Assembly (NCBI GenBank): GCA_027486035.1
Contig: JAIXPX010000027.1
Location: 1-37,425 of the forward strand
Origin: Erythrobacteraceae bacterium
Lineage (GTDB): Bacteria; Pseudomonadota; Alphaproteobacteria; Sphingomonadales; Sphingomonadaceae
DNA length: 37,425 bases
Reading direction: 5' to 3'
A model generated the notes under the pieces. The model did not search any database and was not told the DNA's origin. It saw only the letters and a program-made list of their open reading frames with translations. Positions 5,035 to 24,366 of the stretch are shown here, piece after piece. Within the stretch, counting starts at the first letter, position 1. Each line of letters opens with the position of its first letter. The position numbers and the translations under genes were made by a program.

Positions 5035-5799
5035 ATGGATCTGGGATTGAAGGGCAAGAAGGTCATCATGAACGGCGGGGCGCACGGCCTTGGCCTGCAA
5101 TCGCTGAAGCTGTTCGCGGCCGAGGGCGCGGACGTCGCCTTCTTCAGCCGCAAGGAAGACAAGATCGCTGCCGCCGTCGCCGAGATCGATGCCGCCGGCC
5201 CGGGCAAGGTCTTTGCCGAAGTGTTCGACATGGCTTCCGGCACCGAGGCCTATCAGGCGTGGCTTGAAAAGGCGGTCAAGGAACTGGGCGGCTGCGACAT
5301 CTTCGTCCACACCGCTTCTGCCTCGGGCACGGGCGGGGCTGGCGACTGGCAGGCATGCCTCGACATGGACCTGAAGGGCGCGGCCTTCGCGGTCGAGACC
5401 CTGACGCCCTATCTCGAAGCCTCGGGCACTGGCTCGATCGTGATGCTCTCCTCGACCGCCGCGCTCGAAACCTTCATCGCCCCCAACCCCTTCAACGCGA
5501 TAAAGGCCGCGCTGATCACCTATGCCTCGCAATTGAGCCAGGCCTATGCCGCCAAGGGCATCCGCGTGAACACCGTCAGCCCGGGCGCGATCTACTACAA
5601 GGGCGGAAACTGGGAGATCATCGAGGAGCACATGAAGCCGCTCTACGATGCGACCCTCGCCAAGATGCCGATGGGCCGCTTCGGCGAGCCGGTCGAGGTC
5701 GCCAAGGCGATCGTCTTCGTGGCGAGCCCGGCGGTGCCCTACATGACCGGCGCGAACATCGTGGTGGACGGCGGCTTCACCCAGCGCGTCCAGTTCTAA
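5035..5799 (+). CDS. Short-chain dehydrogenase/reductase-like protein with Tyr-to-Phe active site
   Basis: Rossmann-fold SDR-family protein of 254 residues, first gene of a five-gene operon. The cofactor loop is NGGAHGLG (residues 13-20) in place of the usual TGxxxGxG, the NNAG motif is replaced by HTASASG (92-98), the serine region is MLSSTAA (Ser139/140), and the catalytic YxxxK is FNAIK, with Phe153 and Lys157. The C-terminal NTVSPGAIYY and MTGANIVVDGGF are typical of the family. The missing Tyr means either a different chemistry or a non-oxidoreductase role; a simple NAD(P)H-dependent reductase cannot be assumed. A strong Shine-Dalgarno GGGGAGAGG precedes the ATG. The 289 nt between the tRNA and this gene hold no gene I can support, only a GANTC site (4942-4946) and the short inverted repeat GTCAA-AA-TTGAC (4957-4968). 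Confidence 0.85.
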   Translation: MDLGLKGKKVIMNGGAHGLGLQSLKLFAAEGADVAFFSRKEDKIAAAVAEIDAAGPGKVFAEVFDMASGTEAYQAWLEKAVKELGGCDIFVHTASASGTGGAGDWQACLDMDLKGAAFAVETLTPYLEASGTGSIVMLSSTAALETFIAPNPFNAIKAALITYASQLSQAYAAKGIRVNTVSPGAIYYKGGNWEIIEEHMKPLYDATLAKMPMGRFGEPVEVAKAIVFVASPAVPYMTGANIVVDGGFTQRVQF

Positions 5800-5826
5800 G
5801 ACCCTCTCCCTAGAAGGCGAAACACC

Positions 5827-6795
5827 ATGTCCCAGATCGACCGCGACAAGCTGCTCGACATCTACACCCGCACGATGAAGGTGAACCGCACCGACGAGAA
5901 GTTCCGCGAGCTCCTGATGGGCGGCAAGGTCGCGGTGATGTATTACTGCGTGCGCGGGCAGGAACTGGTCTCGGCGGCGGCGATGGCGGCGCTCGAAAAG
6001 GAGGACTACGTCGTCTGCACCTACCGGGGCCAAGGCGAGCAGACCGCCAAGGGCATCCCGATGGAGAAGTGGTGGGGCGAATGCCTCGGCAAGGCGACCG
6101 GCACCTGCAAGGGCAAGGGCGGCACCATGCACATCACTGACCCCGAGACCGGGATCATGGTGACGACCGGCGTCGTCGGCTCGGGCCTTCCCATCGCCAA
6201 CGGTCTTGCCATGGCGAGCCAGAACAATGGCGACGGGCGCGTGACGCTGGTGAGCTTCGGGGACGGCGCGGCCAATATCGGCGGCTTTCACGAGGCGATG
6301 AACATGGCCCAGCTCTACAAGCTGCCGGTCGTCTTCCTGTGCCAGAACAACCGCTATGGCGAGCACACCGCCTATGCCGACCATACCGACAGCCCCAACA
6401 TCGCTTCGCGCGCCGCCGGCTACGGAATGCCGGGCGTGACGGTGGACGGCAATGATGTCCATCAGGTCTACCCGGCGGTGAAGGAAGCGGTCGACCGCGC
6501 CCGACGGGGCGAGGGGCCGACCCTTGTCGAGGCCATGTGCTACCGCATGATGGGCCACTTCTTCGGCGCCGACTTCAGCTACATGCCAGCGGAGCACATC
6601 GCCGAGATGAAGGCGGAGGACCCGCTGCCCAAGCTGCGCAAGGTGATGCTGGAGCACCAGTTCACCGAGGAGGAATTGGACGCCATCGTCGCCGACATCG
6701 ACGCCCAGATCAACGCGGCGGTCGAACACGCGCTCGCCGCGCCGCTGCCGGATACCGACGAAATCTACAAGGACGTGCTGGAGGAGACCGCCTGA
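5827..6795 (+). CDS. Thiamine-pyrophosphate dehydrogenase E1 component, alpha subunit
   Basis: Alpha subunit of an E1 of the acetoin / 2-oxoacid dehydrogenase type (AcoA or PdhA-like), 322 residues. The TPP-binding motif starts with GDG at 145-147 in FGDGAANIGGFHEA and ends with NN at 174-175 in CQNNRYGEH. GKGGTMH near residue 97 and GSGLPIANGLA near 118 are family hallmarks. With the beta subunit it would decarboxylate a 2-oxo acid (or cleave acetoin) and pass the acyl unit to a lipoyl group. Its gene follows the SDR by 27 nt, with an AGAAGG Shine-Dalgarno, and shares one base with the beta-subunit gene. The substrate cannot be read from sequence; automatic labels such as pyruvate or acetoin dehydrogenase would be guesses. 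Confidence 0.9.
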   Translation: MSQIDRDKLLDIYTRTMKVNRTDEKFRELLMGGKVAVMYYCVRGQELVSAAAMAALEKEDYVVCTYRGQGEQTAKGIPMEKWWGECLGKATGTCKGKGGTMHITDPETGIMVTTGVVGSGLPIANGLAMASQNNGDGRVTLVSFGDGAANIGGFHEAMNMAQLYKLPVVFLCQNNRYGEHTAYADHTDSPNIASRAAGYGMPGVTVDGNDVHQVYPAVKEAVDRARRGEGPTLVEAMCYRMMGHFFGADFSYMPAEHIAEMKAEDPLPKLRKVMLEHQFTEEELDAIVADIDAQINAAVEHALAAPLPDTDEIYKDVLEETA

Positions 6796-7781
6796 TGGCC
6801 CAGATCACCATGACCCAGGCGCTCAACCTCGCAATCGACGAGGCGATGGCCGAAGATCCGGGCGTGTTCTGCCTCGGCGAAGACGTTTCCGCCAAGCAGG
6901 GCGGCGGGGTGTTCAAGGTCACCGCTGGTCTGACCGAGAAATATGGCGAACACCGCATCCGCGCGACGCCCATCAGCGAGACCGCGATCATCGGCGCAGC
7001 GGTGGGCGCGGCGCTCGCCGGCCAGCGCCCGATCGCCGAGATCATGCTGATGAACTTCGTCGGCGTGTGCATGGACCAGATCGTCAACCACGCCGCCAAG
7101 CTGCGCTTCATGTCCGGCGGGCAGACCCCCTGCCCGATGGTGATCCGCACCACCACCGGCGTCGGTGTCGGCTTCGGCGGGCAGCACTCGGATATGCTCG
7201 AGGCATGGTTCGCCCACGTGGCCGGCATTCACGTGGTGACGCCCAGCAACCCCGCCGACGCGCGCGGGCTGATGCGGGCGAGCATCGACGCCAATGACCC
7301 GGTGATCTTCATCGAGAACATCCTGTGCTACGGCCTCAAGGCCGAAGACCCCGGCCCGGGCTACCGAGTCCCGCTCGGCAAGGCGGCGATCGCGCGCGAG
7401 GGGACCGATATCTCGATCATCACCTATGGCCGCACCGTGCTCGACGCGCTGGCGGTGGCCGATGACCTCGCCAAGGAGGGCATTTCGGTCGAGGTCGTCG
7501 ACCTCAGAACCATCGCTCCTTATGACGAAGCGACCGTGCTCGCATCGGTCCGCAAGACGGGCCGCGCGCTCACCCTGCACGAAGCTGTGCGCCCCTTCGG
7601 CACCGGGGCGGAAATCGCCGCCAACATCCAGGAAAAGTGCTGGGACGTGCTCAAGGGCCCGGTCCGGCGCGTCGGCGGCACCTTCTCCGCCGTGCCCTTC
7701 GCTTCGCATCTCGAACAGGCGTGGATCCCGAACAAGGGCCAGATCATCGAACAGATCAAAGCAAGCACGGGCAAGCTCTAG
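6795..7781 (+). CDS. Thiamine-pyrophosphate dehydrogenase E1 component, beta subunit
   Basis: Beta subunit (328 residues) pairing with the preceding alpha subunit. It starts MAQITMTQALNLAIDEAMAE and has the transketolase-like pyrimidine-binding region (CLGEDVSAKQGGGVFKVTAG, ATPISETAIIGAAVGAAL) and the C-terminal domain (VEVVDLRTIAPYD, TLHEAVRPFGTGAEIAA). The ATG at 6795 overlaps the alpha TGA by one base (TGATG); an upstream extension of the frame lies inside the alpha gene and is not real. The stop TAG is immediately followed by the ATG of the lipoyl-domain gene, so stoichiometric expression is likely. Confidence 0.92.
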   Translation: MAQITMTQALNLAIDEAMAEDPGVFCLGEDVSAKQGGGVFKVTAGLTEKYGEHRIRATPISETAIIGAAVGAALAGQRPIAEIMLMNFVGVCMDQIVNHAAKLRFMSGGQTPCPMVIRTTTGVGVGFGGQHSDMLEAWFAHVAGIHVVTPSNPADARGLMRASIDANDPVIFIENILCYGLKAEDPGPGYRVPLGKAAIAREGTDISIITYGRTVLDALAVADDLAKEGISVEVVDLRTIAPYDEATVLASVRKTGRALTLHEAVRPFGTGAEIAANIQEKCWDVLKGPVRRVGGTFSAVPFASHLEQAWIPNKGQIIEQIKASTGKL

Positions 7782-8015
7782 ATGGCATCCGAAATCCGCA
7801 TCCCCAAGCTCGGCATGAGCGCGGTCGAAATGACTCTCGTCGAATGGATGTTCGGCGATGGCGAGCGCGTCGAGAAGGGCGACATCATCTACACCGTCGA
7901 AACCGACAAGAGCACCACCGAGATCGAAGCCCAGGCCAGCGGGATCATCCATCCCACCGGCGAGGAAGGCGCGGTCTATAAAGTGGGCGATCTGATCGGC
8001 ACCATCGAAGAGTGA
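7782..8015 (+). CDS. Free-standing lipoyl-domain protein, 77 aa
   Basis: A single lipoyl/biotinyl carrier domain and nothing else: 77 residues starting MASEIRIPKLGMSAVEMTLV. Lys43 in ETDKSTTE is the predicted lipoylation site, and the C-terminal half has the expected GxVYKVGDLIGTIEE barrel strand. In ordinary 2-oxoacid dehydrogenases this domain is the N-terminus of E2 and is followed by a subunit-binding domain and an acyltransferase domain; both are absent here, and the reading frame ends in a clear TGA with no frameshifted remainder, since the next gene is unrelated. It abuts the E1 beta gene (0 nt) and overlaps the next gene by GTGA. It most likely accepts the acyl group from this E1 and hands it to an enzyme encoded elsewhere. 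Confidence 0.9.
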   Translation: MASEIRIPKLGMSAVEMTLVEWMFGDGERVEKGDIIYTVETDKSTTEIEAQASGIIHPTGEEGAVYKVGDLIGTIEE

Positions 8016-8398
8016 GCACGCCGCGCGAACTTCTGGCCAACGTCTACGCCACCGCCGGCACACGCGACTGGGCGGCGGTGGAGGCGCTGATCCACCCGGA
8101 CTTCGTGCTCTACGAGGCGAACTCGCTCCCTTTCGCGGGGGAGTGGCGGGGCAGGGACGCGCTCCAGCGCTGCGCCGCCGCGATGTACGGCACCTGGGCG
8201 AACACCGATCTGGAAATCCTCGACTGCACCGGGGGCGATACCCATGCGGTGATGGTGATCCGGCTGACGATGCACCCCAAGGACGGCAGCGAACCCTTCA
8301 CTCAGACGATTTGCGAGGCGGGAACCTTCGAGGACGGGCTGCTGAAAACCTTGCGCATCCACTACTTCGACGCGGCCGAGGTCGCCGCGCGGGCCTGA
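8012..8398 (+). CDS. NTF2/SnoaL-like domain protein
   Basis: Protein of 128 residues with the cone-shaped alpha+beta fold pattern of the SnoaL/NTF2 superfamily: an N-terminal helix (TPRELLANVYATAGTRDWAA), the LIHPDFVLYE strand with WRGRDALQR, and later strands LEILDCTGGDTHAVMVIRL and TLRIHYFD. Members are isomerases, hydrolases, dehydratases or plain ligand binders, so no reaction can be assigned. The start is GTG at 8012, which overlaps the lipoyl gene stop (GTGA). It is the last gene of the operon, and its tight coupling suggests a role in the same pathway. Confidence 0.8.
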   Translation: MSTPRELLANVYATAGTRDWAAVEALIHPDFVLYEANSLPFAGEWRGRDALQRCAAAMYGTWANTDLEILDCTGGDTHAVMVIRLTMHPKDGSEPFTQTICEAGTFEDGLLKTLRIHYFDAAEVAARA

Positions 8399-12799: not shown

Positions 12800-13831
12800 A
12801 TGGCATTTTCCCGCTTTTCCGCTGCCCTGACCGGTATCGCTGCCGCGCTTGCGGCGATCGCCGCTCCGGCCGGAGCGCGGGAGGATGATCTCCGCGCGAC
12901 GTTCGACAGCACCTTCGGCACCAAGGCCCGCGCCCCGAAGAGCTTCGATGCGGTCTATGCCTCGAGCTTCCAGCAGCGCATCGCCCAGCTCGCTGACCCC
13001 GCCCGGGGGCGGATCGGCGTTGCCGCGATCGATCTTGCTACCGGCGAGGAAGTGGCTGTGCTCGGCGACCAGCTCTTCCCGATGGCCTCGACCAGCAAGA
13101 TCGCGGTCGCGGCGACCTATCTCGAGATGGTCGAGAAGAAGAAATTCTCGCTGACGAGCGAATTTCCGCTGATGATGCCGGTTGCCTCGGCGCGGTTTTC
13201 CTCGCCCAAGGCGCCGGTGCGCGCCGGGCAGGTGATGCCGGCCATCGACCTGATCGAGATCATGATCACCCGCTCCTCGAACCCGGCGACCGACGCGCTC
13301 CTCGCCGCGGTCGGCGGGCCGGCGGTGGTCAACGACTTCATGCGCCGCAAGGGCATCAAGAACTTCTCGATCAACCGCGACATCGCCACGCTGGTGCGCG
13401 ATGATGGCGAGTTCAACCCGGCGAGCTATGTCGACAAGCGCGATGCGGCGACCCCGCGCGCGATGGTGCAACTGCTTGCAGGGCTCCACCGGGGCGAGTT
13501 CCTGTCCGACGAGAGCCGCCAGGTGCTTCTCGCGGCGATGAGCCGCACCGTCACCGGCAAGCGCCGCATCCCCGCCAATATCCCGCTCGAAGCGCGGGTC
13601 AGCCACAAGACCGGCACGCTCTCCAACACCTCGAGCGACGTCGGCCTGATCGAATGCCCCGACGGGCGCGTGATCGCGGTCGCGATCTACGTTACAGGGC
13701 AGGGCAGCAAGCAGGCGCGCGAGGAACGCATCGCCGCCATCGCGCGGGCGCTCTACGATGGCTTTGCGGTCCGCGCGCAATCCAATCCGGTCAAGAACTG
13801 GGCGAACGCGCCATACGGCAACGGGGGCTGA
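12800..13831 (+). CDS. Class A beta-lactamase-like serine hydrolase
   Basis: A 343-residue exported protein; the signal peptide is roughly residues 1-26 (AIAAPAGA). The class A motifs are STSK (Ser97, Lys100), SSN (159-161, in place of SDN) and KTG (270-272, in SHKTGTLS), with DKRDAATPRAM matching the region after the omega loop. The omega loop itself is about seven residues longer than in TEM-type enzymes and lacks the ExxxN spacing of Glu166/Asn170; Glu204 in DDGEFNP is the nearest candidate. It may therefore acylate but deacylate poorly, or act on something other than antibiotics. No LysR/AmpR-type regulator is next to it. The start is the ATG preceding the signal peptide; it has its own promoter. 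Confidence 0.82.
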   Translation: MAFSRFSAALTGIAAALAAIAAPAGAREDDLRATFDSTFGTKARAPKSFDAVYASSFQQRIAQLADPARGRIGVAAIDLATGEEVAVLGDQLFPMASTSKIAVAATYLEMVEKKKFSLTSEFPLMMPVASARFSSPKAPVRAGQVMPAIDLIEIMITRSSNPATDALLAAVGGPAVVNDFMRRKGIKNFSINRDIATLVRDDGEFNPASYVDKRDAATPRAMVQLLAGLHRGEFLSDESRQVLLAAMSRTVTGKRRIPANIPLEARVSHKTGTLSNTSSDVGLIECPDGRVIAVAIYVTGQGSKQAREERIAAIARALYDGFAVRAQSNPVKNWANAPYGNGG

Positions 13832-20224: not shown

Positions 20225-20947
20225 ATGACCAAGCTCTATCCCGACGCTGCAAGTGCGCTCGCCGACGTGCTGCGCGATGATATGCTGATCGCCGCCGGGG
20301 GCTTTGGCCTTTGCGGCTTGCCGGAACGGCTGCTGGACGCGATCCGAGACAGCGGCGTCACCGGGCTTACCTTTGCCAGCAACAATGCCGGGATCGACAA
20401 CGAGGGGATCGGCAAGCTGTTGCGTACGCGGCAGGTCAGGAAGATGATCAGCTCCTATGTCGGCGAGAACAAGGAGTTCGAACGGCAATATCTGGCGGGC
20501 GAGCTGGAAGTCGAATTCTGTCCGCAAGGCACCCTCGCCGAACGGATGCGGGCCGGCGGCGCGGGGATCCCCGGCTTCTACACCCGCACCGGCGTCGGCA
20601 CCGAAGTCGCCAAGGGCAAGGAGCACAAGGATTTTCCCGGTCGTGACGGCGTGATGCAGACCTATATCCTCGAACAGGGGATCTTCGCCGACCTCGCCAT
20701 CGTCAAAGCGTGGAAGGCGGACGAGACCGGCAATCTTGTGTTCCGCAAGACCGCGCGCAACTTCAACCAGCCGGCGGCGACCTGCGGCAAGATCTGTGTC
20801 GCCGAGGTCGAGGAGGTGGTTCCCGCAGGCAGCCTCGATCCCGACCAGATCCACCTGCCCGGGGTCTTCGTGAATCGCATCGTTCTGGGCGCACCCTACG
20901 ACAAGAAGATCGAGTTCCGCACGGTGAGGGAGCGGGAGCCGGCCTGA
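20225..20947 (+). CDS. scoA: 3-oxoacid CoA-transferase, subunit A
   Basis: Subunit A (240 residues) of a family I CoA-transferase that moves CoA from succinyl-CoA to a 3-oxo acid such as acetoacetate. The CoA-transferase 1 signature GGFGLCGLPE is at residues 25-34; FASNNAGIDNEG, FCPQGTLAERMRAGGAGIPGF and GRDGVMQTYILE follow in the normal SCOT order. The start ATG at 20225 has AGGAAGG upstream; the frame upstream is intergenic. It is first in a five-gene operon in which each start overlaps or nearly touches the previous stop, but subunit B is not the next gene: a HAD-like gene intervenes. Acetoacetate is the likeliest substrate; 3-oxoadipate is possible. The leader (20101-20224) has a 7-bp hairpin AAAGCCG/CGGCTTT at 20124-20140. 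Confidence 0.93.
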   Translation: MTKLYPDAASALADVLRDDMLIAAGGFGLCGLPERLLDAIRDSGVTGLTFASNNAGIDNEGIGKLLRTRQVRKMISSYVGENKEFERQYLAGELEVEFCPQGTLAERMRAGGAGIPGFYTRTGVGTEVAKGKEHKDFPGRDGVMQTYILEQGIFADLAIVKAWKADETGNLVFRKTARNFNQPAATCGKICVAEVEEVVPAGSLDPDQIHLPGVFVNRIVLGAPYDKKIEFRTVREREPA

Positions 20948-21666
20948 TGCGAGGCAGTGTCGCGCTTTTGCCCCTGTTGGCGCTGGCGGCCACGGCTCTG
21001 CCCGGCCCCGTGCCAGCTTCGGCTCAGGCCTCTCCGGAGGCGGCGGAATCGCAGCCGCCTCCGCCGTCACCCGCGCCCGAGACAGCCACGGTATCCGGCT
21101 TTGCCCAGATGGTGCGCTATGGCCGCGCCGCTGCGCTGGCCCGCAATCCCCAGAGCGGTTCCATCTCGGCGATCCTCAGCGATCCTTTCGCTCTCGACGG
21201 CAGGCGTGCCCGCTTCCCGGCCGGACAGCAGCACATCATGCTGATCGACCTTGATCCGGCGGGCGGCACCCTTGTCCCGCCCGCCACGCCGGAGCGGCAG
21301 CAGGGCCTGATCCTCGGCTTTGCCGTGCTGCGCGAAGCAGGGATCGCGATTCGCTGGATCTCCGATCTTCCGGTCGAAGAAGCAGGACGGCTTCGCACAG
21401 CGCTTGAGCTATCCGGCCTCGATCCAAGCGATGAGGCCATCATCTCGCTGCGCCCCGAGAGCCAGGCGCGCAAGCAGGAGCACCGCGAAAATCTGGCCAA
21501 GACCGCCTGCATCACTGCCATCGGCGGCGACGAGCGCGCCGATTTCGACGAACGCTTCCGCTACCTCAAGAACCCCGCCGCCGACGCAGATCTCGATAAG
21601 GCGATCGGCGACGGCTGGTTCCTGATCGATCCCGTGTTTCCGGTCGATGGAGAGAAGACGAAATGA
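20947..21666 (+). CDS. Secreted HAD-like (acid phosphatase type) protein between the CoA-transferase subunits
   Basis: A 239-residue protein with a signal peptide ([20 protein letters not shown], probable cleavage after ASAQA) and a Pro-rich spacer. The rest resembles the acid phosphatase branch of the HAD superfamily: motif [12 protein letters not shown] (Asp101, Asp103), motif [10 protein letters not shown] (Ser139), motif III Lys176/Arg180 in [11 protein letters not shown], motif [16 protein letters not shown] (Asp195, Asp199). The PAGGT insert after the DxD makes motif I unusual, so activity is uncertain. Its ATG overlaps the scoA TGA (TGATG) and its stop overlaps the scoB ATG (ATGA), so it is translated as part of the CoA-transferase message although it should leave the cytoplasm. 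Family assignment is inferred by eye. Confidence 0.7.
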
Positions 21667-22316
21667 CCACCCCGATCCCCTCCGGCTGGACCCGCGACGA
21701 AATGGCCGCGCGCGCCGCGCGCGAATTGAAGGACGGTTACTACGTCAACCTCGGCATCGGCATCCCGACGCTGGTGGCGAACCACATCCCTGAAGGGATG
21801 CTGGTGACACTCCAGAGCGAGAACGGGATGCTCGGCATCGGGCCGTTTCCCTATGACGACGAGGTCGATCCCGACCTCATCAATGCGGGCAAGCAGACGA
21901 TCTCCGAACTGCCGCATTCCGCCTATTTCGATTCCGCGACGAGCTTCGCGATGATCCGCGGCGGCCATATCGACCTCACCGTGCTCGGCGCGATGGAGGT
22001 GGCCGAGAACGGCGACATCGCTAACTGGATGATCCCGGGCAAGATGATCAAGGGCATGGGCGGGGCGATGGACCTTGTCGCGGGGGTCAAGAAGATCATC
22101 GTCGTGATGGACCACACCGCCAAGGACGGAACGCCCAAGTTCATCCCTGAATGCACCCTGCCGCTGACCGGCGCGGGGGTGGTCGACATGATCATCACCA
22201 ACCTTGCCGTGTTCCAGCGGCCCGCGAAGGGCGAGCCGTTCCGCCTCATCGAGATGGCGCCGGGGGTGACTGCGGCCGATATCGCCGCGACGACCACCGC
22301 GCATTACAGCGTGTGA
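21663..22316 (+). CDS. scoB: 3-oxoacid CoA-transferase, subunit B
   Basis: Subunit B (217 residues), carrying the catalytic Glu53 in [13 protein letters not shown], the site that forms the glutamyl-CoA thioester in family I CoA-transferases. [27 protein letters not shown] and [10 protein letters not shown] are standard. Together with scoA it forms the complete enzyme, so both halves are present despite the gene between them. The ATG at 21663 overlaps the upstream stop by 4 nt; the stop overlaps the next start by 1 nt (TGATG). Confidence 0.94.
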
Positions 22317-23200
22317 TGCTGCGTGTTGCGGCGCTCGGCCTCTTCGCGCTTGCGGCGGTGATCGGCGGGATGTTCGCCTTCGTCTCCCCGCCGCGACTGC
22401 TGTCGCATTATGACCGGCTGGCGGGCGGGCACGATGGCTCACAACCGTTGGCGACCGGTGTGCCGTTCGGCAGCCACGGGCAGAGGCTCGACATCTGGGC
22501 GCCGAACGATGTGGCCGGGGCACCGTTGCCGGTGGTGATTTTCTGGTATGGCGGTGGCTGGGCCAAGGGTGATCGTGCGTCCTACGCCTTCGCGGGACGG
22601 GCCCTCGCCAAGGCAGGCTTCGTCGTCGTCATCCCCGATTACCGCAAGGTGCCGCAGGTGCGCTTCCCTGCCTTCCTCGAGGACGGGGCCGAGGCGGCGG
22701 CCTGGGTCGAGGGCAACATTGCGCAATATCGCGGCGATCCGGCACGGGTGGCCTTCATGGGGCATTCGGCGGGCGCCTATCAGGCGGTGATGCTCGCGCT
22801 CGACAGCAAGCGGCTGGCGGTAGAGGGGGTCGATTCCGGCTTCGTGAAGGCGGCGGTCGGCCTCTCCGGCCCCTACGACTTTCATCCCTTCACCTCCGAG
22901 CGCGCGATCGACGCTTTCTCGCGCTGGCCGCATCCGCAAGAGACGCAGCCGATCGCCTTCGCCCGCAAGGATGCGCCCCCGATGCTGCTCGTGACCTCGG
23001 ACGGCGACGAGACCGTCCGCCCGAAGAACGCCAACAATCTTGGTGCGAAGCTGCGGGCGATGGGCGCGCCGGTCGAAGTGAAGAACTTTGGCCCCCTCGA
23101 TCACGAGGAGATCGTGATGGCCCTCTCGGTCCCGTTCCGCGGCAAGGGTCCGGTCCTTGCCGACAGCGTGGCCTTCCTGCGCGAACATCTGGGAGAATGA
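22316..23200 (+). CDS. Alpha/beta hydrolase (BD-FAE / carboxylesterase-like)
   Basis: A 294-residue protein with an N-terminal hydrophobic segment (residues 1-24: signal anchor or signal peptide) followed by an alpha/beta hydrolase fold. The oxyanion motif is WYGGGWAKGD (HGGG-like with Tyr for His), the nucleophile elbow is GHSAG (Ser151), the acid is in TSDGDETV (Asp231) and the His is in LDHEE (His263). This resembles HSL-type or arylformamidase-like carboxylesterases. The start ATG at 22316 overlaps the scoB stop. Being coupled to CoA-transferase genes, it may act on an ester or thioester in the same pathway, but its likely membrane or periplasmic location argues for releasing a substrate outside the cytoplasm. 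Confidence 0.82.
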   Translation: MLRVAALGLFALAAVIGGMFAFVSPPRLLSHYDRLAGGHDGSQPLATGVPFGSHGQRLDIWAPNDVAGAPLPVVIFWYGGGWAKGDRASYAFAGRALAKAGFVVVIPDYRKVPQVRFPAFLEDGAEAAAWVEGNIAQYRGDPARVAFMGHSAGAYQAVMLALDSKRLAVEGVDSGFVKAAVGLSGPYDFHPFTSERAIDAFSRWPHPQETQPIAFARKDAPPMLLVTSDGDETVRPKNANNLGAKLRAMGAPVEVKNFGPLDHEEIVMALSVPFRGKGPVLADSVAFLREHLGE

Positions 23201-23202
23201 CC

Positions 23203-24366
23203 ATGTGGCTGGCAGCGCCCCGCAATCCCGATGCGCCGCTGGCCGGCCTCAAGGTGGTGGAGCTTGCCCGGGTGCTGGCTGGGCCCTTCTGCGGACAGAT
23301 CCTCGCCGATCTCGGTGCGGACGTGATCAAGGTCGAAAGCCCGGAAGGCGACGGGACCCGCCTGTGGGGGCCGCCGTGGGTGGAGCGCACCGACGCCGAG
23401 GGGCGTGTCCACCGCGAGGCCGCCTATTACCACGCCTGTAACCGGGGGAAGCGATCGATCATCGCCGACTTCGCTAAGGCTGATGATCTCGCTCGGGTGA
23501 AGGCTCTGTGCGGGGAAGCCGACGTCGTTATCGAGAACTTCAAGACCGGCTCCCTTGCGAAATTCGGGCTGGACTATGCGAGCCTGTCCGCTGCCAACCC
23601 GGGCCTTGTCTATTGCTCGATCACCGGCTTCGGGCAGACCGGGCCGAGAGCGCATGAGGCGGGCTATGATTTCGTCGCGCAGGGAATGAGCGGGCTTATG
23701 TCCCTGACCGGCGAACCAGTCGGGCACCCGGTCAAGATGGGCATCTCGATCAGCGATCTGGCCACCGGCGTCTGGGCTGCGAACGGCATTCAGGCGGCGC
23801 TGCTGATGCGGGAGCGGCCCGGGCCGAGGCAGGGGCGCGGCCAGCAGGTCGACATGGCGCTGCTCGATTGCTCGGTGGGCCTCCTCGCCAACCAGGCGAG
23901 CTACTTCTTCACCACCGGCCAGAACCCGCCCCGCATGGGCAATGCCCACGCGCAGGTCGCGCCCTATGGCGTCTTTGCTGTGAGCGATGGCCATGTGATC
24001 CTCGCGCCTGCCAATGACGGGCTGTTCCACAAGCTCATGGCCGTGCTGGGACGGAGCGCATTGGCCGAGGATCCGCGCTTCCGCACCAATGGCGCCCGCA
24101 CCGCCAACGCCAGAGCTCTCGACGCCGAGATCGCGGCGGCGACGGCGGGCTGGACCAAGCAGGGCCTGCTCGACGCCTGCCATGCCGCAGGGGTGCCGGC
24201 GGGGCCGATCAACCGGCTCGACGAGGTCTTCGCCGACCCGCAGGTCATCGCCCGGGGCCTCAGGATCGAGCTCGGCGGGATGGCGGGGGTGCGCAGCCCC
24301 TTCGTCTTTTCCGATGCGCAGCTCGCACTCGATCGGCCCTCGCCGATCCATGGGGAAGACGGCTAG
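23203..24366 (+). CDS. Family III CoA-transferase (CaiB/BaiF)
   Basis: A 387-residue CoA-transferase of the CaiB/BaiF family, which includes formyl-CoA transferase and alpha-methylacyl-CoA racemase. It has LAGLKVVELARVLAGPFCGQ, LGADVIKVESPEGDGTR, the catalytic Asp156 in AGYDFVAQGMSGLM, and GRGQQVDMALLD. Start choice: GGGAG (23191-23195) is 7 nt before the ATG at 23203 and almost touches the ATG at 23197, so 23203 is preferred; 23197 would add two residues and a 4-nt overlap with the hydrolase. Its TAG is interlocked with the stop of the opposing gene in CTAG (24363-24366). It is the last gene of the operon, which thus carries two unrelated CoA-transferase types. Confidence 0.92.
   Translation: MWLAAPRNPDAPLAGLKVVELARVLAGPFCGQILADLGADVIKVESPEGDGTRLWGPPWVERTDAEGRVHREAAYYHACNRGKRSIIADFAKADDLARVKALCGEADVVIENFKTGSLAKFGLDYASLSAANPGLVYCSITGFGQTGPRAHEAGYDFVAQGMSGLMSLTGEPVGHPVKMGISISDLATGVWAANGIQAALLMRERPGPRQGRGQQVDMALLDCSVGLLANQASYFFTTGQNPPRMGNAHAQVAPYGVFAVSDGHVILAPANDGLFHKLMAVLGRSALAEDPRFRTNGARTANARALDAEIAAATAGWTKQGLLDACHAAGVPAGPINRLDEVFADPQVIARGLRIELGGMAGVRSPFVFSDAQLALDRPSPIHGEDG

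What the first reader, a model, noticed from the sequence alone, without database searches (positions are those of the whole stretch)
5035..8398. Dehydrogenase operon with E1 subunits and a lone lipoyl carrier but no E2 or E3
Five tightly coupled genes encode an atypical SDR, E1 alpha, E1 beta, a 77-residue protein that is only a lipoyl domain, and an NTF2/SnoaL-like protein. In known 2-oxoacid and acetoin dehydrogenases the lipoyl domain is part of E2. Here it is a separate small carrier with no acyltransferase domain, ending cleanly and overlapping the next gene by GTGA. The acyl group loaded by E1 must go to an enzyme in trans or to a non-E2 acceptor, possibly one in the operon. This could be a distinct carrier-protein form of oxidative decarboxylation.
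Basis: partly seen in the sequence, partly recalled or inferred. Interest (0 to 1): 0.72.

Follow-up and report, generated by a model that had tools for sequence, protein, structure and literature searches.

The report
Free lipoyl carrier beside orphan E1
In this bacterium and dozens of its relatives, the two E1 genes of a dehydrogenase are followed by a gene for a tiny free-standing lipoyl protein instead of a complete E2 enzyme, so the acyl group it is predicted to pick up is likely passed on by an E2 core made elsewhere in the genome.

Summary
Five tightly packed genes (5035-8398) encode an altered SDR, E1-alpha, E1-beta, a 77-residue lipoyl-only protein and an NTF2/SnoaL protein; the operon has no E2 or E3. 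It is no recent accident: E1-alpha, E1-beta and the free lipoyl protein occur together in 56 of 56 loci of the closest clade, and the lipoyl lysine is the same in 230 of 230 aligned relatives. The E1-beta belongs to a family apart from PDH, BCKDH and acetoin-dehydrogenase E1-beta (support 99/98). Elsewhere in that family the E2 is split: 40 of 81 E1-beta genes in 80 named loci have a free lipoyl gene plus a separate E2 core without lipoyl domain in the same locus. The window's clade lacks such a core near the operon; its own genome (89.9% complete) shows three E2 cores, all in lipoyl-bearing multidomain ORFs. In sister loci the bare core groups with PDH E2 (99/90). Best reading, inferred: a split-E2 system whose free carrier is served in trans, most likely by the housekeeping PDH E2 core. 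A non-E2 acceptor is not excluded. The substrate is unknown.

The parts
5035..5799 (+). SDR-fold protein, 254 aa, with Phe153 (codon 5491-5493) for the catalytic Tyr and Asp112 for the usual Asn
   Evidence: PF13561/PF00106; Phe in 119 of 121 aligned relatives and in 19 of 19 locus homologues; present in 53 of 56 closest-clade loci, the 3 misses having less than 1 kb of sequence upstream of E1-beta
5827..6795 (+). ThDP-dependent E1 alpha subunit, 322 aa; His244 (codon 6556-6558) aligns with the loop His of human PDH E1-alpha
   Evidence: PF00676 2.1e-75; PDB alignment to 1ni4_A; present in 56 of 56 loci
6795..7781 (+). E1 beta subunit, 328 aa; His131 (codon 7185-7187) at the place of the conserved E1-beta His
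   Evidence: PF02779/PF02780; PDB alignment and alignment with PDH, BCKDH and AcoB E1-beta; own clade apart from these in the tree
7782..8015 (+). free lipoyl carrier protein (LIP), 77 aa, lipoyl domain only; predicted lipoyl-lysine Lys43 (codon 7908-7910)
   Evidence: PF00364; K43 in 230 of 230 aligned relatives; 469 relatives of similar, stand-alone length; AlphaFold2 model and Foldseek
8012..8398 (+). NTF2/SnoaL-like protein, 128 aa, start overlapping the LIP stop (GTGA)
   Evidence: PF12680 5.5e-12; present in 52 of 56 closest-clade loci

Best explanation
The operon encodes what is likely one half of a split dehydrogenase complex: an E1 pair and a free lipoyl protein (LIP) that is predicted to be loaded with an acyl group by E1 and would then likely hand it to CoA at the catalytic core of an E2 made elsewhere in the genome, most likely the pyruvate dehydrogenase E2. 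Steps shown by sequence or calls: the five genes, the lipoyl-only protein with an invariant lysine, conservation as a unit, the separate E1 family, the separate E2 core gene in many relatives, the lack of a dedicated core near the operon in the window's clade, and the presence in the genome of LipB, two E3 genes and three housekeeping E2s. Steps inferred: (1) LipB (and LipA, not searched) lipoylates Lys43; (2) E1 with ThDP cleaves a C-C bond next to a carbonyl of an unknown substrate and reductively acylates the lipoyl group; (3) the free carrier diffuses to an E2 core, where the acyl group passes to CoA; (4) a housekeeping E3 reoxidises the dihydrolipoyl carrier with NAD+; (5) the SDR-fold and NTF2 proteins prepare or process the substrate, together with a Rieske oxygenase, a second SDR, a VOC protein and a LuxR regulator that in relatives sit next to the operon and in this genome sit on another contig. 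The choice of the PDH core rests on the sister loci, whose bare core groups with PDH E2.
For: E1a-E1b-LIP in 56 of 56 closest-clade loci. LIP in 40 of 60 other same-genus genomes at 79% or more. K43 in 230 of 230 (near-copies included, rows chosen by similarity to LIP). E1-beta family of 43 rows against 9 rows of PDH, BCKDH, AcoB and other E1-beta, 99/98 (larger quick tree of 144 rows: a 129-row family, SH-aLRT 99). Separate core genes: 249, 250 and 275 aa proteins with PF00198 only, directly after LIP in Diaphorobacter and two Paraburkholderia; 40 of 81 E1-beta genes in 80 named loci have free LIP plus a bare core in the locus, 25 free LIP without a core, 14 no lipoyl gene (one of them with a bare core), and 2 (both in L193) are flagged with a complete E2. 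Core tree: 46 bare cores form one clade (100/99), 42 of them with DHRVING where the canonical motif is DHRxxDG; the five bare cores of the window's sister loci (L086, L218, L226, L228, L229) instead group with Sphingomonadales PDH-type E2 (99/90). Own genome: three PF00198 cores in frames of 426, 461 and 693 aa, each with a lipoyl match; LipB over cut-off; two lipoamide dehydrogenases over cut-off. Companion genes: Rieske 32 and VOC 32 of 56 loci beside the operon; in this genome they sit on contig C43 with a 79% Rieske orthologue.
Against: No docking or transfer evidence; no complex was modelled. If the PDH core serves the carrier, it is unclear why five sister loci keep a dedicated PDH-derived core. 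The branch joining the window's clade with those sisters has support 91/94 only, under the usual bar, and two sister rows (L087, L116) have LIP and no core. 'PDH' for the C50 E2 is by elimination (C28 carries a BCKDH-like pair, C9 an OGDH-like E1). The genome is 89.9% complete, so a dedicated transferase could be missing from the assembly; of the 68 E1-beta-bearing genomes 14 have more than three cores, 7 of these a bare one, and not every row was listed. An acyltransferase of another fold (AcoC has an alpha/beta-hydrolase) would not be seen with PF00198. The altered SDR residues are unexplained.
Confidence: 0.5

Rival explanations
1. The acyl group goes to a non-E2 acceptor: the free lipoyl protein works like an acyl carrier protein and an enzyme of the operon or of its companion cluster (the altered SDR, the NTF2 protein, a GST-like neighbour) takes the acyl group directly.
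For: No dedicated E2 core near the operon in the window's clade. The SDR is the most constant companion (53 of 56) and has lost the catalytic Tyr and the usual Asn, so it may not be a plain dehydrogenase. A GST-like gene sits between SDR and E1-alpha in five loci (L081-L085). ACP as acceptor behind an E1 and a lipoyl protein is reported for glycolicacyl systems (passages of PMC6335953).
Against: Relatives of the same E1 family use a PF00198 core. NTF2 is missing from 4 of 56 loci and the GST match is found in 7 of 56. No ACP gene was noticed in the operon. No known SDR or NTF2 protein takes acyl groups from lipoamide (recalled, not searched).
Confidence: 0.2
2. A dedicated acyltransferase exists but was not seen, either in the missing tenth of the assembly or as a protein of another fold, such as the alpha/beta-hydrolase half of an AcoC-type E2.
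For: Genome 89.9% complete. The lipoyl protein's best NCBIfam match is the AcoC model PRK14875, whose remainder is an alpha/beta-hydrolase (1.9e-16, below its cut-off; fold recalled). Fused-E1 relatives have an alpha/beta-hydrolase gene in the same cluster (L094, L099, L100, L101).
Against: 54 of 68 E1-beta-bearing genomes, nearly all at least 90% complete, show exactly three PF00198 cores. No alpha/beta-hydrolase gene was recognised among the conserved neighbours annotated in the closest clade, though only one representative per neighbour cluster was scanned.
Confidence: 0.15
3. E1 and LIP carry out oxidation without transfer to CoA: the acyl-lipoyl bond is hydrolysed or the carrier only shuttles electrons to E3.
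For: Free lipoyl proteins with redox or sulfur roles exist (LbpA, passages of PMC6067878). Two E3 genes are present.
Against: Retained E1 active-site His residues and the linked E2 cores in relatives point to acyl transfer.
Confidence: 0.1
4. The operon is a remnant: the E2 core was lost and the rest is decaying.
For: The dedicated core found in sister loci is absent here.
Against: All five frames are intact; LIP is 79-100% identical over 40 same-genus genomes and K43 never varies; spacing and overlaps are tight; the five-gene unit is kept even where the neighbouring cluster has moved away. One locus (L106) does show E1-beta in two pieces.
Confidence: 0.05

Closest known systems
Canonical 2-oxoacid dehydrogenase complexes (PDH, BCKDH, OGDH)
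   Same: Alpha2beta2-type E1 with the same domains and conserved His residues; lipoyl domain fold and ETDK motif; E2 core of the same Pfam family in relatives.
   Different: The lipoyl domain is its own protein without linker, subunit-binding or catalytic domain; the core is a separate gene (relatives) or absent from the locus (window); E1-beta lies outside their clade.
Acetoin dehydrogenase AcoA/AcoB/AcoC
   Same: Similar gene order E1-alpha, E1-beta, lipoyl; LIP's best NCBIfam match is AcoC PRK14875 (below cut-off); E1-beta shares a GVCxDQI stretch with two of the AcoC-linked E1-beta (L235 GVCFDQI; L234 GCCLDQI).
   Different: AcoC is one chain; the three AcoC-linked E1-beta (L234-L236) group with the canonical set, not with this family.
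Actinobacterial OdhA with AceF (hybrid PDH/ODH)
   Same: The acyl group is carried by a lipoyl group provided in trans (passages of PMC10415282).
   Different: There the donor lipoyl domain is part of a full E2p; E1 and succinyltransferase are fused in OdhA. Here the lipoyl domain is free.
QncN/QncL/QncM and SclQ1-4 glycolicacyl systems
   Same: Dedicated E1-like ThDP proteins with a lipoyl protein outside central metabolism (passages of PMC6335953).
   Different: There lipoyl and acyltransferase domains share a chain and the acceptor is an ACP; no ACP is seen here.
Free lipoyl proteins GcvH and LbpA
   Same: Stand-alone lipoyl carriers (passages of PMC6067878).
   Different: Those resemble GcvH; LIP matches only the E2-type PF00364/PF13533 models and is linked to E1 genes.
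E1-alpha/E1-beta/small lipoyl gene next to a TRAP transporter, Thermus thermophilus plasmid pAA2-2b
   Same: E1-alpha, E1-beta and an 82-aa biotin/lipoyl protein with no E2 annotated next to them.
   Different: Its E1-beta falls with the canonical set in the quick tree, on a long branch: probably an independent case.

Membership tests
Canonical 2-oxoacid dehydrogenase complex | Heterodimeric ThDP E1 with catalytic His residues | tested here: met
   Pfam; E1-alpha His244 and E1-beta His131 aligned with PDH/BCKDH structures and sequences
Canonical 2-oxoacid dehydrogenase complex | E2 with lipoyl, subunit-binding and catalytic domains in one chain, encoded with its E1 | tested here: not met
   LIP has only PF00364/PF13533 matches; no lipoyl-bearing E2 belongs to the operon; no bare core in the fetched flanks of 56 loci
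Canonical 2-oxoacid dehydrogenase complex | E1-beta groups with PDH/BCKDH E1-beta | tested here: not met
   Separate clade, 99/98
Canonical 2-oxoacid dehydrogenase complex | Lipoylated lysine | not testable with these tools
   K43 invariant and LipB present, but lipoylation needs mass spectrometry
Acetoin dehydrogenase | AcoC-type E2 (PRK14875/NF011457) | tested here: not met
   LIP matches the first 78 positions of 372 at 60 bits against a cut-off of 307; own genome best NF011457 E-value 1.3e-24, not over cut-off
Acetoin dehydrogenase | E1-beta groups with AcoC-linked E1-beta | tested here: not met
   L234-L236 fall with the canonical rows
Acetoin dehydrogenase | Activity on acetoin | not testable with these tools
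   needs an assay
Split-E2 E1 family (defined in this report) | E1-beta inside the family clade | tested here: met
Split-E2 E1 family (defined in this report) | Free lipoyl-only protein encoded beside E1 | tested here: met
Split-E2 E1 family (defined in this report) | Separate lipoyl-less E2 core gene in the locus | tested here: not met
   absent here and from the closest clade; present with 40 of 81 E1-beta genes of the 80 named loci. Not universal in the family, so used as a trait and not as a bar
GcvH/LbpA free lipoyl proteins | Glycine-cleavage H type domain | tested here: not met
   Pfam scan of LIP lists PF00364 and PF13533 only

The most novel reading that the evidence does not exclude
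Bacteria run a modular, carrier-protein version of the 2-oxoacid dehydrogenase reaction: the lipoyl domain is a free acyl carrier, used like an ACP, which collects acyl groups from a dedicated E1 in a catabolic pathway (for example by cleaving a ring at an alpha-hydroxyketone made by the Rieske oxygenase) and delivers them to whichever acyltransferase is at hand: a bare dedicated core, a PDH-derived core, the housekeeping PDH itself, or a non-CoA acceptor.
Probability: 0.35. Interest if true: 0.78.

Novelty: new variant of a known kind. Interest (0 to 1): 0.6.

Why it matters
The swinging arm tethered to the E2 core is the textbook explanation of why 2-oxoacid dehydrogenases are giant complexes. 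Here is a widespread E1 family (129 E1-beta rows in one tree) in which the arm is a separate 76-77 residue protein, often with a separate core, and a clade that has given up the dedicated core. If the inference holds, substrate channelling by tethering is optional, and free lipoyl proteins now annotated as 'lipoyl domain-containing protein' or as E2 are acyl carriers of unexplored catabolic pathways. It gives a testable system: one small carrier, one E1, and three candidate cores in one genome.

Tried and rejected
Recent deletion or decay: rejected on conservation, apart from one locus, L106, with E1-beta in two pieces. Acetoin dehydrogenase: rejected as membership on the tree and on AcoC; split AcoC-like hydrolases were suspected in one genus (L237-L243) but no lipoyl or E1 gene lies beside them. 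GcvH-type carrier: no such Pfam match. Literature on a split E1/lipoyl/core system: searches (PubMed Central papers under CC0, CC BY and CC BY-SA only) listed no paper describing it; most subscription papers are not held, so this is weak. Bile-acid and tomatine papers on Sphingobium were looked at by passages only (PMC8399759, PMC12175502, PMC10653915): none of them mentions lipoyl proteins, so the substrate stays open. PMC3543383 (passages) describes acetoin genes and a GcvH-like LarG, not this. Promoter and terminator scan: no promoter-like site; three terminator-like sites, all on the minus strand, against 2.3 expected. SDR model m14ef31f1be57 (pLDDT 84.3) was made but not searched further. 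The first gene-calling scripts were wrong (frame error in the training set, empty locus) and were mended; the self-trained caller also mis-called the window and the own-genome locus L308, corrected by tblastn and another codon table. Known wrong tags in my tables: L043 tagged LIP is the own BCKDH cut at the locus end (relabelled); L080 and L193 tagged FULL lie beside another complete complex; L325 tagged bare lies in a 436-aa frame and is taken as a full PDH-type E2. The named loci were drawn by similarity to E1-beta chosen from loci with lipoyl neighbours, so 40 of 81 is not a population frequency.

Full report
What is there. Window 5035-8398 holds five genes on the + strand with 27, -1, 0 and -4 bases between them: an SDR-fold protein, E1-alpha, E1-beta, a 77-residue lipoyl-only protein (LIP) and an NTF2/SnoaL protein, each with clear Pfam matches. 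LIP is a complete lipoyl domain and nothing else: PF00364 covers residues 4-75 of 77, and its predicted fold matches lipoyl domains of E2. Both E1 subunits keep the His residues of the PDH-type active site (E1-alpha His244, E1-beta His131). The SDR has Phe153 for the catalytic Tyr in 119 of 121 aligned relatives and Asp112 at the place of the usual Asn in 120 of 121, while Ser140 and Lys157 are kept in all 121.

The genome. The window is contig C40 of a 2.55 Mb, 52-contig assembly estimated 89.9% complete. It has three PF00198 E2 cores, on C9, C50 and C28, in frames of 426, 693 and 461 aa, each of which also carries a lipoyl match; LipB; and two lipoamide dehydrogenases over the curated cut-off, on C50 and C9. 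I read C50 as PDH, C28 as BCKDH and C9 as OGDH E2, by neighbours and elimination. LipA was not searched. No lipoyl-less E2 core was found.

Conservation. Among 100 genomes searched with LIP (own genome, 60 others of the genus, 39 of other families of the order), 40 of the 60 have it at 79% identity or more and two more show a short piece. I then looked at 56 loci of the closest E1-beta clade: 40 fetched, and the window. E1-alpha, E1-beta and LIP are present in 56 of 56, the SDR in 53 (the other three have less than 1 kb upstream of E1-beta), NTF2 in 52, Rieske oxygenase and VOC protein each in 32, LuxR in 30, a second SDR in 27, NmrA in 22. An E2-core match occurs in one of 56, L080, and that is a lipoyl-bearing E2 of another complex 9 kb away. 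In the window's genome the companion Rieske (79% identity), second SDR, VOC, LuxR and TIM-barrel genes lie together on contig C43. Lys43 of LIP is the same in 230 of 230 aligned sequences (110 from loci and window, 120 database proteins; near-copies included). So LIP is neither a fresh truncation nor decaying.

The family. In the order-wide search, 68 of 396 genomes have an E1-beta match at E 1e-95 or better. In plasmids and in the species genomes with names (80 loci chosen by similarity to an E1-beta alignment), the same E1 pair recurs in Paraburkholderia, Trinickia, Variovorax, Pseudomonas, Azospirillum, Nitrospirillum, Solimonas, Sphingobium, Sphingomonas, Novosphingobium and others. Of 81 E1-beta genes in those 80 loci, 40 have a stand-alone lipoyl gene and a bare E2 core in the locus, 25 a stand-alone lipoyl gene without core, 14 no lipoyl gene in the held sequence (one of these with a bare core; several loci are short), and 2, both in L193, are flagged with a complete E2: one of them is that complete complex's own E1-beta, the other its neighbour. 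The cores of Diaphorobacter and two Paraburkholderia are 249-275 aa with PF00198 only. This is a split E2: arm and catalytic core as separate genes.

Trees. In a careful tree of 52 E1-beta rows the family (43 rows) is separated from 9 rows of PDH, BCKDH, AcoC-linked and other E1-beta with support 99/98; a quick tree of 144 rows gives a 129-row family (SH-aLRT 99). Inside the family, one branch (21 rows, 99/95) holds the rows with the common bare core; the other (17 rows, 91/94, just under the usual bar) holds the window's clade (10 rows, 100/100), five sister rows with a bare core and two sister rows with LIP only. In the core tree (83 rows) the common bare cores form one clade of 46 (100/99), 42 of them with DHRVING where canonical cores have DHRxxDG; three of the 46 keep the Asp and one lacks the motif. 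The five sister cores are not in that clade: they group with Sphingomonadales PDH-type E2, including the window genome's own C50 E2 (99/90). So within the window's own branch the only dedicated transferases seen are of PDH E2 descent.

How it most likely works. Shown: the gene content, the conservation, the separate family, the split core in relatives, and the absence of a dedicated core near the operon in the window's clade. Inferred: LIP is lipoylated; E1 loads it; the acyl group passes in trans to an E2 core, most likely that of PDH; E3 is shared. That a lipoyl group can be supplied in trans is reported for actinobacterial OdhA (passages of PMC10415282). The substrate is unknown. The companion genes (Rieske oxygenase, SDRs, VOC, FAD_binding_2 protein, acyl-CoA dehydrogenases and CoA ligases in various relatives) suggest catabolism of a polycyclic or alicyclic compound, which is an inference from annotation.

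Against this. The PDH assignment is by relatedness only. Seven of 68 E1-beta-bearing genomes carry a bare core somewhere, so dedicated cores do matter in this order; 54 of 68 have exactly three cores, but the listing was cut, so not every frame was checked (G278, for one, shows frames of 233 and 248 aa). A transferase of another fold would be invisible to PF00198. A tenth of the genome is missing. The altered SDR has no explanation here, and a non-E2 acceptor is not excluded.

Verdict. Observation confirmed, interpretation partly supported. It is a new variant of a known kind: a 2-oxoacid-dehydrogenase-like system with a free lipoyl carrier and split or borrowed E2 core. Ten searches of a held open-access library listed no description of it, which is weak evidence of novelty since most subscription papers are not held.

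Noticed in passing
L094:9244-11471, L099:8131-10382, L100:8020-10299, L101, L098, L102: A second form in Sphingomonadales: a fused E1-alpha/beta of about 660-690 aa followed by its own stand-alone lipoyl gene; in L094, L099, L100 and L101 it is clustered with a TonB receptor, an alpha/beta-hydrolase, an amidohydrolase and an AMP ligase. The hydrolase could be the transferase half of a split AcoC-like E2.
   Followed up: partly
L254:2533-4720 (Thermus thermophilus plasmid pAA2-2b): E1-alpha, E1-beta and an 82-aa biotin/lipoyl protein followed by a TRAP transporter, with no E2 annotated beside them; E1-beta falls with the canonical set on a long branch, so probably an independent E1 plus free lipoyl case.
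   Followed up: partly
bare E2 cores, e.g. L118:12236-12985, L119:12249-13001, L123:10283-11110: Lipoyl-less E2 cores of the family carry DHRVING for the canonical DHRxxDG: Asp replaced by Asn in 42 of the 46 rows of that clade, His kept.
   Followed up: partly
window 5035-5799: SDR with Phe for the catalytic Tyr and Asp for the usual Asn, kept across the clade: probably not a classical dehydrogenase. What it does is unknown.
   Followed up: partly
L169, L180, L185, L190, L192, L195, L198, L202, L210, L220, L223, L225, L230: Thirteen family E1-beta loci with no lipoyl gene and no core in the held sequence, several from Acidocella; the lipoyl protein may lie elsewhere, as it does about 6 kb away in Sphingobium RAC03 and about 19 kb away in Sphingobium TomTYG46.
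   Followed up: no
L255:4488-7431 (Clostridioides difficile plasmid): E1-alpha, E1-beta, E2 and lpdA; the listed lipoyl match lies on lpdA and my lipoyl model found none in the E2 frame, so the arm seems to sit on E3 there.
   Followed up: no
window 20225-24366: A run of + strand genes that begins with what looks like a CoA-transferase subunit, by eye from the translation; no family scan was made.
   Followed up: no
window 12800-13831: Exported protein with an STSK stretch that looks, by eye, like a class A beta-lactamase or penicillin-binding relative; not tested.
   Followed up: no
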